Shown here: one piece after another, positions 4,086-9,206 of the stretch | How the letters are laid out: every line of letters begins with the position of its first letter | How positions within the stretch are numbered: the first letter of the stretch is position 1 | Assembly: GCA_016207825.1 (NCBI GenBank) | Contig: JACQZI010000008.1 | Location: 255,763-319,762 of the forward strand | Source of the DNA: Planctomycetota bacterium | GTDB lineage: Bacteria > Planctomycetota > MHYJ01 > JACQXL01 > JACQZI01 | DNA length: 64,000 bases | Direction of reading: 5' to 3' | The notes under the pieces: generated by a model | What the model saw: the letters and a program-made list of their open reading frames with translations, nothing else | What the model was told of the DNA's origin: nothing | Databases searched by the model: none | Position numbers and translations under genes: made by a program

Positions 4086-6167
4086 ATGTCCACTAAAGCG
4101 ATTCAGGCAAAAGTTATTATAGAAAAGCCGGAGCAACTCCAAATCCTCTGGCAGGTGCATTCTACTTTTAACCAGTATTTACCTTTTGTTATCAAGCAGA
4201 TGTACCGGATGAAACGCGGTGAAGCAGGTAAGGAGTATCAGGAAATATTTAATTCTATTTCTTCCAGCCAGAATGCTGTAGGTAAAATGGAAGCGGTAAC
4301 TGATTTAAACTGGGAAACCAGTAAGGCAGATAGTGAAAACGAGAGAGACCAATGGGCAAAAGTCGCGTCTAAACTGGTAAAAGATAAGAAAATACTATTT
4401 GACCGTAAGAAAGAATTACCGAATATTTCCAGTGAATTCCGCCGTAAAATCTTTGAGATGGCATTCCAACTTATTTCCGGACACGATGAATTGATGAAGA
4501 ATTGGAAATCAGAACATAAGAAATGGATAGAAGATAAGAAAAAATGGGAAGAGAAAAATCAGCAATATCTAAAGGTTAGATCAGTATTTGACCAGTTTGA
4601 AAAAGCGGTTGGCGGTAAGGTTACTGGTCGCCGTCAGCGATGGCATAAGTACATAGAATTCCTTAAATCCCATCCTGAATTAGCCGCTTGGCGTGGCAAA
4701 GAAGCCAAAGTGTTAGAAATCTCTGATAAGGCAATGAAGAAAATCGCTAAAGCTCCTCTTCGCAAGAAGAATTCTATTTATGCAAAGGAGTTCTTCAAGA
4801 TAAACCCAGAATTAGAAGCACTGGATAGAATTCATAATTACTATGAAAGAGAATTTGTCCGGCGAACCGCTAAAAGGCGCAATTCAGATGGATTCAAACA
4901 TCCGCCTACTTTTACACAGCCTTCTGCAATTACTCATCCGGCTTGGTTCCAGTTTAAGAAGGGACCTGGTTATCAGGCTTTGAATATTAAAGATAGCTCT
5001 GTGGAATTGAATACTTTTAAAGGCTGGCTGAAATTCACCTTTAAGGCAGACCCAAGATTATACCAATTTGAACCAGTCAAAATAGTTAAGACCACGCGCG
5101 GTGGCAAGGAAAAGGAAGCTGATAGCTATGAATGGACTGACTCCAATCTACAATGTAAGCGCCCGGTAGATATTAAGGGGATAAAATTAGTCTTTAGAAA
5201 TATTGAGTTTGAGAACAAGACTGGTAATCTTATTAGTGCAGACCCGTATCTTATTTTTACCTGCGATATACCTGATTTGTCCTCCAAGCATAAGCTCCGC
5301 CAGGATTCCTGCGATAAATATTCATTTGACTGGGTGCGTAAAAGAATAATGAACGACACGGACGGGAAAATACCTGTTACCTGTGCAATCGACCTTGGTA
5401 TCAGGCATTTAGGCGCAGCAACTGTCCGTAAAGATGGCAAGATTATCCGCACCAGAATAATCTGGGAAGATTCCGTCTACGATACTAATGATTCTACAAA
5501 TATTTACCAGCGAGGCCCCGGTCTTGGGCATATTGCTTTACACAAACGCCAGATTAGTAAGATTCGCAGTCTGCGCGGCAAACCGATTAAGGGAGAAGAA
5601 TCTTCTATTGAACTCCAACAGCATATTGATAATATGGGCGAAGACCGATTTAAGAAGGGTGCGCGTAAGATTATCCAGTTTGCCCTGGGATTAGATGGCA
5701 GTAAAAATAATGATATTAAGGCAGATTTAATACTCATAGAGAAACTCGGCGGGAAAACATTTGTGCCTATGGCAGAGAGAGAACATGGGATTAATAAAGC
5801 CTTGATTAATTGGAATCGCGGCAATTTGGTTACATGGATTAAACGCTTGGCTGTGGATGCCGGGTTAAGAGTGGTGGAAGTTCCGCCTGCGTATACTTCG
5901 CAAGTCTGCAGTAAATGCGGAGAATTTGGCAAGCGATATTCGTATGAGAAAAATAAGGAAAAACAGATAATCGTAAAAGATGACCCATGTGGTAAACTAT
6001 TTAGATGCTCTAAACTTGGTTGTTATGCAGATGTTAATGCTGATTATAACGCCTCGGTTAACCTCCATAAGAAGTTCTTTGGTGAAATGTCTGATTACCA
6101 GAACCTCAAAGACAAATTTGAGGAATTTAAGAAGAAAGTAGTTGACTTCTTTGCCGGAAATAAGTAA
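4086..6167 (+). CDS. cas12: Compact Cas12 effector, type V-B-like
   Basis: A predicted RNA-guided DNA nuclease of 693 aa, far shorter than Cas12b (about 1,100 aa). The split RuvC site is intact: D436 in 'CAIDLGIRHLGA', E552 in 'LILIEKL' and D649 in 'ADVNADYNAS'. Links to Cas12b that I recognise are 'FTxPSAITHPAWFQFKK' near 276-292, 'HIDNMGEDRFKKGARKII' at 513-530 and the 'NKALINWNRGNL' helix after RuvC-II. Unlike classical Cas12b it has a TnpB/Cas12f-like zinc ribbon between RuvC-II and RuvC-III (C608, C611, C641, C646; an extra C635). The Lys-rich helical N-terminal half should bind guide RNA. It has its own consensus promoter and is followed by a candidate tracrRNA, the array, cas4-cas1 and cas2. 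Alternative: a Cas12f-type effector, but the fused Cas4-Cas1 favours a V-B relationship. Confidence 0.88.
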   Translation: MSTKAIQAKVIIEKPEQLQILWQVHSTFNQYLPFVIKQMYRMKRGEAGKEYQEIFNSISSSQNAVGKMEAVTDLNWETSKADSENERDQWAKVASKLVKDKKILFDRKKELPNISSEFRRKIFEMAFQLISGHDELMKNWKSEHKKWIEDKKKWEEKNQQYLKVRSVFDQFEKAVGGKVTGRRQRWHKYIEFLKSHPELAAWRGKEAKVLEISDKAMKKIAKAPLRKKNSIYAKEFFKINPELEALDRIHNYYEREFVRRTAKRRNSDGFKHPPTFTQPSAITHPAWFQFKKGPGYQALNIKDSSVELNTFKGWLKFTFKADPRLYQFEPVKIVKTTRGGKEKEADSYEWTDSNLQCKRPVDIKGIKLVFRNIEFENKTGNLISADPYLIFTCDIPDLSSKHKLRQDSCDKYSFDWVRKRIMNDTDGKIPVTCAIDLGIRHLGAATVRKDGKIIRTRIIWEDSVYDTNDSTNIYQRGPGLGHIALHKRQISKIRSLRGKPIKGEESSIELQQHIDNMGEDRFKKGARKIIQFALGLDGSKNNDIKADLILIEKLGGKTFVPMAEREHGINKALINWNRGNLVTWIKRLAVDAGLRVVEVPPAYTSQVCSKCGEFGKRYSYEKNKEKQIIVKDDPCGKLFRCSKLGCYADVNADYNASVNLHKKFFGEMSDYQNLKDKFEEFKKKVVDFFAGNK

Positions 6168-6177
6168 TATATTATTG

Positions 6178-6420
6178 CCTTCGGGTGACTAACGCGAAGG
6201 TGCTATTAGCCTATAGGGTTAATATGCCGAATGGGGTACCACACTTTGTGGTCTTGTGTTAACAACCGCTGGCTGTAAGGGCTTCGGCCTGATGCAGACT
6301 TGAGCGAGTCCCGAAGAAATTCGGGATAAGTGCGGCGGCAAAACCCCGTCGAATCTTTCCTTTAGGTAGCGAGCGGGGGCGGAATTCAGAGCCCCGCTTA
6401 CCCGCTCGCTTGTTATTACT
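6178..6420 (+). ncRNA. Candidate tracrRNA with split anti-repeat and terminator-like 3' hairpin
   Basis: The gap between cas12 and the array is rich in hairpins: 6178-6200, 6238-6252 and CCCGAA-GAAA-TTCGGG at 6310-6325. It contains an anti-repeat in two blocks. Bases 6351-6364 (GAATCTTTCCTTTA) pair with repeat bases 18-31 with one G-U wobble, and 6385-6393 (TTCAGAGCC) pair with repeat bases 9-17. Together they cover 23 contiguous repeat bases, interrupted on the tracr side by 20 bases (6365-6384). The insert starts a 10-bp hairpin, AGCGAGCGGG (6368-6377) with CCCGCTCGCT (6401-6410), followed by a U-rich stretch, which may be the 3' terminator. The 'GGCAAAACCCCGTCGA' just before the anti-repeat recalls the tracrRNA of characterised Cas12b systems. 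No clear promoter is visible; read-through from cas12 is possible. Confidence 0.72.
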
Positions 6421-6543
6421 CGTTAAGGCTCAAGGAATTAGAGTGAATAGTGGATTTAGTATTTATAACTAATAACCTGAATGATGCGACCATTCGCATT
6501 TCGCTCTTTAACAATTTGGAAATTAACGAGTTAAATAAAAGCC
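6421..6543 (+). promoter_or_regulatory. Probable CRISPR leader
   Basis: This is a 123-bp AT-rich gene-free stretch between the tracr-like hairpin and the first repeat. It is placed as the leader because the degenerate repeat lies at the opposite end of the array. No confident promoter hexamers are seen. Confidence 0.5.
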
Positions 6544-6934
6544 ATAGGAACGGCTCTGAATAAAGGAAAGGTTCGGACACCGTATTTAGTGGGCACTTCG
6601 ACATTTATCGTTTCTCCTTATAGGAACGGCTCTGAATAAAGGAAAGGTTCGGACACAATTCGCGCCTGTAAAATAGACGTTCTCGAAGCTCATATAGGAA
6701 CGGCTCTGAATAAAGGAAAGGTTCGGACACTACGCTGAAATGTAAAGGAAAGTTGGTTCCGCATTCGCATAGGAACGGCTCTGAATAAAGGAAAGGTTCG
6801 GACACGGGATGTGCGAATGTGAACGTTTCCAGAATGTCAAGGGATAGGAACGGCTCTGAATAAAGGAAAGGTTCGGACACATGGGTATATACGACCCCGA
6901 AGAGATAGAATCTATCCATAGGAACGGCTCTGAA
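6544..6934 (+). CRISPR. CRISPR array: five 37-bp repeats, five spacers, one truncated terminal repeat
   Basis: The five repeats (6544-6580, 6620-6656, 6694-6730, 6769-6805, 6843-6879) are identical. They start ATAGGAACGGCTCTGAA and end AAAGGAAAGGTTCGGACAC. Spacers are 39, 37, 38, 37 and 38 bp. A sixth repeat (6918-6934) keeps only the first 17 bases. Complementarity with the tracr candidate and the degenerate right end both support transcription left to right, so spacers would follow the GGACAC end. I found no spacer match elsewhere in the window. Confidence 0.97.
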
Positions 6935-6979
6935 CCCCGCACATAAAAACCATGTGCGGGACAGGTGACGGAAAGGTTT
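6918..6979 (+). repeat. Terminal CRISPR repeat interrupted by a hairpin
   Basis: The first 17 bases of the repeat are followed by CCCGCACAT-(7-base loop)-ATGTGCGGG (about 6936-6960) and then, after a few bases, GGAAAGGTT, which matches repeat bases 22-30. The hairpin therefore appears to sit inside a last repeat whose two halves survive. It could cap the precursor crRNA transcript, or be a palindromic insertion. Confidence 0.6.
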
Positions 6980-7007: not shown

Positions 7008-7107
7008 AAGTCATACCACCTAAATTTCCGAATAAACTATCAAGAACACACTTCAGCTATGCGTTTCCTTGACATTGTGTTATAGTGTTCGTGAGAGGGT
7101 ATGACTT
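7008..7107. promoter_or_regulatory. 10-bp inverted repeat flanking the cas4-cas1 upstream region
   Basis: AAGTCATACC (7008-7017) and GGTATGACTT (7098-7107) are exact reverse complements, separated by 80 bp. The right arm ends next to the GGAG ribosome-binding site of cas4-cas1. A TTGACA lies between the arms (7069-7074) but has no well-spaced -10 partner. It may be an operator or an mRNA structure, or chance. Confidence 0.35.
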
Positions 7108-7117
7108 GGAGTGGTAT

Positions 7118-8890
7118 ATGCCCAGCAATACAGAAAATCTGCCTGTTTATTGTCTCAATGCCTTTGTCTATTGTACACGTAGGTTTTATTATGAATATGT
7201 TGAAGGCTTGAGTGTCGTTAATGACGCGGTAGCTGATGGCCAGATAAAACACCGCCGGGTAGACGAAGGCGTTGGCAAAACGACCGCCCCGGACGAAGAG
7301 ACACTACAGACCCGCAGTTTCCATCTTTCGTCAGAGAAATACGGCATCACCGGTAAGATAGATGTTTTAGAAGAAAAGGATAGCGAATGTTATCCGGTAG
7401 AATATAAGAAACGAGCCTGTCCCCGTGACCAGAACGACCAGCCTTTTGTCTGGGATAATGATAAGATTCAACTCTGCGCCCAGGCATTACTGCTGGAAAG
7501 CAATAATTATGGGAATATAGCCAAAGGCTATCTTTATTACGTTGGCTCTAAGATACGGGTTGAAGTCGTTTTTGATGATACACTACGGCAGAAGACAATA
7601 GAGACCATTCAATCCGCCCGCGCCTTAGCCGATAGCGATAAAATTCCTGAACCGCTTAAAGATGATAACCGATGTATCCACTGTTCGCTTCTGCCTATCT
7701 GTTTGCCTGAAGAAACCGGCGCGATAAAATTACCACCAGACCCCGCCAAACCCATCAGACGGATTATCCCAGAAAAGTCAGAGGGCTATGTGGCTTATCT
7801 CAACCACCAGGGGGCGCGGGTCACCAAGAAAGGCGAGAATCTGGTTATCCTTGATTCCAAGGGCGAGAAATTGCAGGAACTTCATCTTTATCATCTGGAA
7901 CAGATAGTCGTCTTCGGGAATATTTCTATCAGCACACAGGCATTATCCTGCTTACTGGAAAATAATATCCCCATCGTTTATCTTTCCATCCACGGCAAGT
8001 TTAAGGGCGTAACCACCGGTATTCCGCCTAAGAATATCTCATTAAGAATGGCGCAATATGAGGCGGCGAATAACCAGGCGCTGGCGTTAGCAATCGCCCG
8101 TTCCATCACCGCTACCAAGGTTCATAACCAACGGGTGATGCTGATGAGAAATGCCCAGAATAACACGAAGCAAAGCGGAGTCCCGAATAATATCGGGAGT
8201 GAAGAAGCCAAATATAAACTCCAACATCTTATTTCGGAATGTGTAAATGCACCTGCTTTGGAATCATTGCTCGGATTTGAAGGCACAGCCGCACGGTATT
8301 ATTTTGGCTCGTTCAACGAGATGCTAAAGCGAAGCGACAGTCCCGAAAGATCGGGAATCCAATCGGGATTAAATGGCAATGGTTTTACCTTTTCCTTTGA
8401 GGGCAGGAATAAACGACCGCCGTCTGACCCGGTTAATGCCTTGTTATCTTTTGCATATGCACTATTGGCGAAAGACTGTTTCTCGGCTTGTTTGACCGTT
8501 GGCTTAGACCCGTATTTAGGGTTTTATCACCAGACTAAATATGGCCGTCCGGCATTGGCGCTTGACCTGATGGAAGAATTTCGTCCGATTATTGCCGACT
8601 CGGTTGTCCTGACGCTTATTAATAACAAGATGGTATCCAACAATGATTTCCTGATTAACAACGGAGCGAAGCGGAGTCCCGATAGCCATCGGGGAGGTGC
8701 CTGTTACCTTACAGAATCCGGCAGACGTTCTTTCTTTGAGGCGTATGAAAGACGGAGAAATGATGTGGTAACGCATCCGGTGTTTGGCTACCAAATGTCC
8801 TACGGTCGTGTTCTGGAAACACAGGCTCGTTTACTTGCCAGAGTAATTACCGGCGAAGCACCGGAATATATCGGCTTCAAGGTTAGATAA
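7118..8890 (+). CDS. cas4-cas1: Cas4-Cas1 fusion (spacer acquisition nuclease/integrase)
   Basis: This 590-aa protein joins a Cas4 nuclease to the Cas1 integrase, an arrangement characteristic of type V-B and some type I systems. The Cas4 part (1-215) has GKIDVL (D82), VEYKK (E95, K97), a Q-containing helix, and iron-sulfur cysteines C19, C186, C189 and C195. The Cas1 part (from about 222) has E388 in GFEGT, H471 in GFYHQ, and D483/E486 in DLMEEFRP, so both active sites look intact. The ATG at 7118 is chosen because GGAG lies six bases upstream and Cas4 homologues start near here; a GTG at 7085 is the alternative. Three short segments unlike other Cas1 proteins coincide with palindromic DNA elements and keep the frame. 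Confidence 0.95.
   Translation: MPSNTENLPVYCLNAFVYCTRRFYYEYVEGLSVVNDAVADGQIKHRRVDEGVGKTTAPDEETLQTRSFHLSSEKYGITGKIDVLEEKDSECYPVEYKKRACPRDQNDQPFVWDNDKIQLCAQALLLESNNYGNIAKGYLYYVGSKIRVEVVFDDTLRQKTIETIQSARALADSDKIPEPLKDDNRCIHCSLLPICLPEETGAIKLPPDPAKPIRRIIPEKSEGYVAYLNHQGARVTKKGENLVILDSKGEKLQELHLYHLEQIVVFGNISISTQALSCLLENNIPIVYLSIHGKFKGVTTGIPPKNISLRMAQYEAANNQALALAIARSITATKVHNQRVMLMRNAQNNTKQSGVPNNIGSEEAKYKLQHLISECVNAPALESLLGFEGTAARYYFGSFNEMLKRSDSPERSGIQSGLNGNGFTFSFEGRNKRPPSDPVNALLSFAYALLAKDCFSACLTVGLDPYLGFYHQTKYGRPALALDLMEEFRPIIADSVVLTLINNKMVSNNDFLINNGAKRSPDSHRGGACYLTESGRRSFFEAYERRRNDVVTHPVFGYQMSYGRVLETQARLLARVITGEAPEYIGFKVR
8167..8205 (+). repeat. Palindromic element copy A inside cas1
   Basis: A GCGGAG lead-in is followed by TCCCGA-ATAATA-TCGGGA (8181-8198). 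It encodes a KQSGVPNNIGSE-like insertion in a surface loop of Cas1 without breaking the frame. Confidence 0.7.
8329..8372 (+). repeat. Palindromic element copy B inside cas1
   Basis: An AAGCGAAGCGACAG lead-in is followed by TCCCGA-AAGA-TCGGGA (8341-8356) and a further ATCGGGATT. It encodes an insertion before the conserved 'FSFEGRNKRPPSDPVNALLS' motif of Cas1. Confidence 0.72.
8664..8698 (+). repeat. Palindromic element copy C inside cas1
   Basis: A GGAGCGAAGCGGAG lead-in is followed by TCCCGAT-AGCC-ATCGGGGA (8677-8695). It encodes AKRSPDSHRG between 'DFLINNG' and 'GACYLTESGRR', which are normally nearly adjacent in Cas1. Confidence 0.75.
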
Positions 8891-8910: not shown

Positions 8911-8924
8911 TAGGGGTGTGTAAA

Positions 8925-9206
8925 ATGAATTATTACATTATCGCCTATGACATCGCCGACCCCAAAAGATTAAACCGCATCCATAAAACACTTAAGGATT
9001 ACGGCAACCCTTTACAGTTTAGTATCTTTGAGTGTTACTTGACACGTAAGGATTTAATTATACTACAGGATAAATTAGAGAGAATTATCAATAACGCCGA
9101 AGACCGGATTATTGTTCTTGCTTTATGCCCGCCCTGCAAAGACCGGATAACGATTATCGGCAAACAGGAAATGCAGGAGCAACCAAATGGGGCAGTAGTA
9201 GTATAA
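8925..9206 (+). CDS. cas2: Cas2 (spacer acquisition)
   Basis: A 93-aa protein with the Cas2 ferredoxin-like pattern: 'YYIIAYDIADPKRLNRIHKTL' at the N-terminus, 'YGNPLQFSIFECYL' in the middle and the 'DRIIVLALCPPC' strand. Cas2 dimers bridge Cas1 dimers in the integration complex. The ATG at 8925 gives the standard MNYYIIAYD start; a GTG at 8916 would add three residues. The last ten residues (EQPNGAVVV) look like a short tail. It is the last gene of the cas set, on the same strand as cas4-cas1. Confidence 0.95.
   Translation: MNYYIIAYDIADPKRLNRIHKTLKDYGNPLQFSIFECYLTRKDLIILQDKLERIINNAEDRIIVLALCPPCKDRITIIGKQEMQEQPNGAVVV

What the first reader, a model, noticed from the sequence alone, without database searches (positions are those of the whole stretch)
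6351..6410. Split anti-repeat in the candidate tracrRNA
Two blocks (14 and 9 bases) complement 23 contiguous bases of the CRISPR repeat but are separated by a 20-base insert that begins a strong hairpin with 6401-6410. The second block lies in the loop of that hairpin, and an alternative inner stem (GGGGC/GCCCC) would sequester part of it. The RNA could therefore switch between a terminator-like fold and repeat pairing.
Basis: seen in the sequence. Interest (0 to 1): 0.8.

Follow-up and report, generated by a model that had tools for sequence, protein, structure and literature searches.

The report
V-B2 tracrRNA with hairpin-split anti-repeat
This is the helper RNA (tracrRNA) of a small, uncharacterised Cas12b-type CRISPR system; its crRNA-binding site is cut in two by a 19-20 base hairpin arm that eight related systems lack, most likely a tolerated structural variant and not an on/off switch.

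Summary
6350-6364 and 6384/6385-6393 pair with adjoining parts of the CRISPR repeat (18-32 and 9-18 of 37). They are separated by 6365-6383/4, which forms a 10-bp perfect stem with 6401-6410; the second block is exactly the apical loop. The RNA is a real tracrRNA of a 693-aa Cas12b ('V-B2'-like) system. A covariance model built from four relatives, without the window, finds it (E 1.6e-4). This short plus long anti-repeat pair lies at the same spacing (87-101 nt) in all nine loci examined, with a compensatory change in one. Eight relatives have no comparable long tracr-side insert, so the split is peculiar to this locus. The insert is nearly an inverted copy of the 17 bases downstream, as a replication template switch would leave.

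The proposed switch is not supported by energetics: opening the hairpin for full repeat pairing costs about 11 kcal/mol, and co-folding keeps the hairpin while block 1 pairs. Outer stem plus both blocks may coexist as a pseudoknot. Type V-C tracrRNAs have disjoint anti-repeats, so the principle is known; the hairpin around the second block is a new variant. No expression data exist.

The parts
4086..6167 (+). cas12b-like effector, 693 aa ('V-B2'-type); catalytic-type residues D436, E552, D653 and the Zn-binding Cys motif present
   Evidence: PADLOC Cas12b models PDLC01655 E 4e-161 and PDLC01654 E 6e-140; D436, E552, D653 invariant among relatives
6142..6170 (+). sigma70-like promoter (TTGACT-17-TAATAT) placed to start the tracrRNA at about 6177
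   Evidence: one hit; shuffles give 1.7 on average, so weak; several relatives have TATACT at a similar place after cas12b
6177..6425 (+). tracrRNA; both ends inferred, conserved core 6253-6352
   Evidence: covariance model from four relatives hits 6253-6379, 26.1 bits, E 1.6e-4; whole-region fold z -4.4
6256..6260 (+). short anti-repeat GTGTT, pairs with last five repeat bases GACAC (terminal G-U)
   Evidence: GTGTC at the same distance from the long anti-repeat in relatives; G755 has CTGTC for repeat end GACAG
6350..6364 (+). long anti-repeat, block 1 (pairs repeat 18-32)
6365..6383 (+). insert that interrupts the long anti-repeat; near-inverted copy of 6394-6410
   Evidence: no comparable insert in eight relatives
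6384..6393 (+). long anti-repeat, block 2 (pairs repeat 9-18); apical loop of the hairpin
6368..6410 (+). hairpin enclosing block 2 (outer stem 6368-6377/6401-6410, inner stem 6378-6382/6394-6398)
6503..6517 (+). boxA-like antitermination motif GCTCTTTAACAATTT ahead of the array
   Evidence: exact match, the only one in the window; boxA-like motifs follow the anti-repeat in six relatives
6544..6917 (+). CRISPR array, five repeats and five spacers
6918..6978 (+). terminal sixth repeat, split after repeat base 17 by a 35-nt insert holding a hairpin (CCCGCACAT/ATGTGCGGG), remnant GGAAAGGTT
7085..8890 (+). cas4-cas1 fusion
   Evidence: NF049935 E 3e-199
8916..9206 (+). cas2
   Evidence: TIGR01573 E 9e-15

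Best explanation
The region is the 3' half of the tracrRNA of a small Cas12b (V-B2-like) system. The tracrRNA grips the crRNA repeat in three places: a short anti-repeat (6256-6260) on the five bases next to the guide, block 1 (6350-6364) on the next 15 bases, and block 2 (6384-6393) on the next 10. Blocks 1 and 2 were once one continuous anti-repeat, as in relatives. A 19-20 nt inverted copy of downstream sequence was inserted between them, making a hairpin that presents block 2 in its loop. Block 1 plus the short anti-repeat suffice to dock the crRNA. Block 2 pairs inside the loop with the outer stem kept (pseudoknot), or stays unpaired. The hairpin may mark the tracrRNA 3' end. Shown by sequence: the complementarities, conserved spacing, homology and the insert's uniqueness. 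Inferred: the order of events, the pseudoknot, transcription and function.
For: Covariance model without the window finds the tracrRNA. Short and long anti-repeats are spaced 87-101 nt apart in nine loci, and the long anti-repeat starts pairing exactly five bases from the repeat end in all. A compensatory change in the short anti-repeat is seen in G755. Relatives' long anti-repeats have only small internal loops: six essentially continuous for about 20 nt, G161 with two 2x2 loops, G290 with several small loops. The insert aligns to the reverse complement of the downstream sequence over 17 nt with one mismatch and a 2-nt gap, and occurs nowhere else in the genome. Co-fold keeps the hairpin and pairs block 1. 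Two-duplex guides are the rule for V-B, and in BhCas12b the long duplex tolerates bulge removal and sequence changes (PMC11246509). Block 2 still matches the repeat at 10 of 10 bases, which argues for retained pairing or a recent insertion.
Against: No RNA data. The closest protein relative (G161) is only 50-51% identical and its repeat is inferred from one and a half copies, so the insertion cannot be dated or polarised at base level. The pseudoknot energy (about -55 kcal/mol before a penalty of roughly 7-10) is within error of the simple state. A perfect 10-nt block 2 in a hairpin loop could also be there for a purpose.
Confidence: 0.66

Rival explanations
1. RNA switch or attenuator: crRNA repeat pairing with blocks 1 and 2 as they emerge from RNA polymerase prevents the hairpin (a terminator) from forming, so crRNA level controls read-through toward boxA and the array.
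For: Block 2 emerges before the 3' arm 6401-6410; the hairpin is followed by TTGTTATT; a boxA motif and the array lie downstream on the same strand. Second halves of the anti-repeat in several relatives also tend to be paired with downstream bases in silico.
Against: Equilibrium favours the hairpin by about 11 kcal/mol over full repeat pairing; the U-tract is weak; no relative shares the design.
Confidence: 0.1
2. The hairpin is only the tracrRNA's terminator or 3' cap and block 2 pairing no longer matters; the system works with block 1 and the short anti-repeat.
For: Hairpin directly follows the anti-repeat in several relatives; Cas12l tracrRNA has a terminator-like hairpin right after the anti-repeat that is dispensable for cleavage (PMC9724661).
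Against: Block 2 is still a perfect 10-nt match in the exact register.
Confidence: 0.17
3. Decay: the insertion damaged the tracrRNA and the locus is dying; the split terminal repeat and small array point the same way.
For: Only five spacers; sixth repeat disrupted; cas1 carries extra in-frame palindromic inserts.
Against: cas12b, cas4-cas1 and cas2 are intact open frames with conserved residues; the five repeats are identical; degenerate terminal repeats are usual.
Confidence: 0.07

Closest known systems
Type V-B Cas12b tracrRNAs (BhCas12b, BthCas12b; PMC11246509)
   Same: Short repeat/anti-repeat pseudoknot next to the guide plus a long repeat/anti-repeat duplex with an internal bulge
   Different: Here a 19-20 nt tracr-side insert forms a hairpin that encloses the second half of the long anti-repeat; the effector is about 693 aa, not 1100-1300
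V-B2-like tracrRNAs of Planctomycetota relatives (L031, L043, L045, L046, L048, L049, L021, L022)
   Same: tracrRNA between cas12b and the array on the same strand, same short/long anti-repeat spacing, conserved core
   Different: No comparable insert; their hairpin, where present, follows the anti-repeat, and six have a boxA-like motif right after it
Type V-C Cas12c tracrRNA (PMC9522604)
   Same: Anti-repeat in separate pieces divided by stems, with pseudoknots
   Different: Much shorter pieces, different effector, no homology tested
Type V-L Cas12l tracrRNA (PMC9724661)
   Same: GC-rich terminator-like hairpin next to the anti-repeat
   Different: The hairpin follows the anti-repeat and does not enclose part of it

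Membership tests
Type V-B (V-B2-like) CRISPR-Cas | Cas12b-family effector | tested here: met
   PADLOC Cas12b ~700-aa models E 4e-161; but NCBIfam Cas12b NF033949 63 bits, below its cut-off of 150, and Pfam C2c1 RuvC-like 21.6 bits, below its 27, as expected for the short branch. The V-B2 name itself was not tested against a reference tree
Type V-B (V-B2-like) CRISPR-Cas | RuvC-type catalytic residues and Zn motif | tested here: met
   D436, E552, D653 invariant in the six aligned proteins
Type V-B (V-B2-like) CRISPR-Cas | Adaptation genes cas4-cas1 fusion and cas2 with CRISPR array | tested here: met
Type V-B tracrRNA | Short anti-repeat pairing next to the guide | tested here: met
   6256-6260; conserved spacing and a compensatory change in G755
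Type V-B tracrRNA | Long anti-repeat duplex | tested here: met
   15 + 10 bp in two blocks; the interruption by 19-20 nt is outside the usual form
Type V-B tracrRNA | Homology to tracrRNAs of relatives | tested here: met
   covariance model E 1.6e-4
Type V-B tracrRNA | Transcribed, processed and needed for interference | not testable with these tools
   no RNA or interference data
Intrinsic terminator | Stable GC stem followed by a U-tract | tested here: inconclusive
   stem strong, tail TTGTTATTACT weak, not returned by the scan, which caps loops at 8 nt
RNA conformational switch | Two folds of comparable stability, exchanged by ligand RNA | tested here: not met
   full opening about 11 kcal/mol worse than hairpin plus block 1; kinetics not tested

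The most novel reading that the evidence does not exclude
The tracrRNA is a crRNA-sensing attenuator: repeat RNA captures block 2 during transcription, blocks the hairpin, and lets polymerase read on toward boxA and the array, tying array expression to crRNA supply.
Probability: 0.07. Interest if true: 0.75.

Novelty: new variant of a known kind. Interest (0 to 1): 0.36.

Why it matters
It gives a family-level anatomy (short plus long anti-repeat, conserved core, nine loci) for the tracrRNA of compact ~700-750 aa Cas12b enzymes, for which I found no experimental description in the papers searched. It also shows a natural case where the long duplex is interrupted by a hairpin, a useful test of how much insertion a Cas12b guide tolerates.

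Tried and rejected
Rfam has no match in the region. Mobile or dispersed element: the hairpin has no second copy in the genome. Shared origin of the anti-repeat insert and the terminal-repeat insert: not similar beyond CCCCGC (388 of 2000 shuffles as good), though both break after repeat base 17. L004 (G140), a weak effector hit, is a TnpB beside a serine-recombinase-like gene, not a relative. First anti-repeat choices in G290 and G473 by duplex energy were replaced after anchoring on the short anti-repeat. Multiple alignment by sequence alone misplaced the window anti-repeat. Four spacer 20-mers gave no match in viral contigs. The effector structure prediction did not finish.

Full report
Locus. 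The window lies in an anonymous genome (G000:C8:255763-319762); relatives with the same effector were found only within its phylum, and one of them is a Planctomycetota MAG (VGYV01000169.1). On the + strand are a 693-aa effector (4086-6167), a non-coding stretch, a CRISPR array (five 37-nt repeats from 6544), a cas4-cas1 fusion (7085-8890) and cas2 (8916-9206). The effector matches PADLOC's ~700-aa Cas12b models at E 4e-161 but scores below the NCBIfam Cas12b cut-off. It belongs to the short Cas12b branch, called V-B2 here by recollection of the published subtypes; a V-B3 variant is named in PMC12669027. The three RuvC residues are invariant among relatives.

Observation. Block 1 (6350-6364) and block 2 (6384-6393) pair with repeat 18-32 and 9-18. 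The 19-20 nt between them form a perfect 10-bp stem with 6401-6410, and block 2 lies in the 11-nt loop. The register-specific second block arises in 68 of 100,000 shuffles, the stem in 6 of 5,000.

Relatives. Searches of about 1,400 genomes gave eight further loci with a readable tracrRNA region (G161, G290, G473, G750, G718, G700, G755, G552); seven have a clear array and G161 has one and a half candidate repeats at its contig end. A motif complementary to the last five repeat bases (GTGTC for GACAC, CTGTC for GACAG in G755) lies upstream of a long anti-repeat in all of them; the distance is 87-101 nt in all nine loci, and the long anti-repeat always begins five bases from the repeat end. In the window this short anti-repeat is GTGTT, 6256-6260. 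This is the short-plus-long duplex layout reported for V-B guides (PMC11246509). A covariance model from G473, G750, G718 and G700 finds the window RNA at 6253-6379, E 1.6e-4. In six relatives the long anti-repeat runs about 20 nt with only 1-2 nt internal loops; G161 has two 2x2 loops, and G290 several small ones, the largest about 9 nt opposite 5. None has an insert like the window's. G161's repeat is inferred from one and a half copies at the contig end.

Origin of the insert. AGCGAGCGGG--GGCGG in the insert aligns with the reverse complement of 6394-6410, one mismatch and a 2-nt gap. It has no second copy in the genome. A template switch at replication that copied the downstream 17 nt in reverse would produce this hairpin and leave block 2 as the loop; this is inference.

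Energetics. Hairpin -27.1, block-1 duplex -20.3, block-2 duplex -15.2, outer stem alone -19.4 kcal/mol. Hairpin plus block 1 is about -47.4; both blocks paired with the hairpin open is -36.5. Both blocks plus the outer stem is about -54.9 before a pseudoknot penalty (my estimate 7-10), so it is about level with the first. The co-fold MFE keeps the hairpin and pairs block 1. A switch that melts the hairpin is thus unlikely at equilibrium; a pseudoknotted, coexisting form is possible. With linkers of 6 and 7 nt around a 10-bp helix it looks sterically feasible (inference).

Transcription. A weak sigma70-like promoter sits at 6142-6170. A boxA-like GCTCTTTAACAATTT lies about 27 nt before the first repeat; in six relatives a boxA-like motif comes right after the anti-repeat. 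BoxA ahead of CRISPR arrays is reported (PMC7862264, citing Stringer et al.). The hairpin is terminator-like only in its stem.

Verdict. A genuine tracrRNA; the split anti-repeat is real and locus-specific. Anti-repeats in separate pieces are known (V-C, PMC9522604; V-B two-duplex guides), so this is a new variant of a known kind. The switch reading stays possible only as a kinetic, co-transcriptional effect that was not tested.

Noticed in passing
6918-6978: The sixth, terminal repeat is interrupted after base 17 by a 35-nt insert holding a 9-bp hairpin; this is the same repeat position at which the anti-repeat is split, yet the two inserts are not similar.
   Followed up: partly
8165-8197, 8330-8366, 8661-8693: Three palindromic stretches sharing a TCCCGA..TCGGG core (two of them GCGGAGTCCCGA) lie in frame inside the cas1 part; a related GAGTCCCGAA..TTCGGGA forms a stem of the tracrRNA (6306-6327).
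   Followed up: partly
6503-6517; L031, L043, L045, L046, L048, L049: BoxA-like motif (CTCTTTRACAA type) between the anti-repeat and the array; in the relatives it directly follows the anti-repeat.
   Followed up: partly
6731-6768: Spacer 3 contains TAAAGGAAAG, identical to repeat bases 18-27, so it could also pair with anti-repeat block 1.
   Followed up: no
6177-6194 / 6412-6430: The tracrRNA MFE closes with a ~16-bp helix between the presumed 5' end and bases just past the hairpin; competes with a local 5' hairpin.
   Followed up: no
L043, L045, L046 leaders: GCGAGTGCG recurs in direct and inverted copies between the tracrRNA and the array, once just before the first repeat in L043 and L046.
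   Followed up: no
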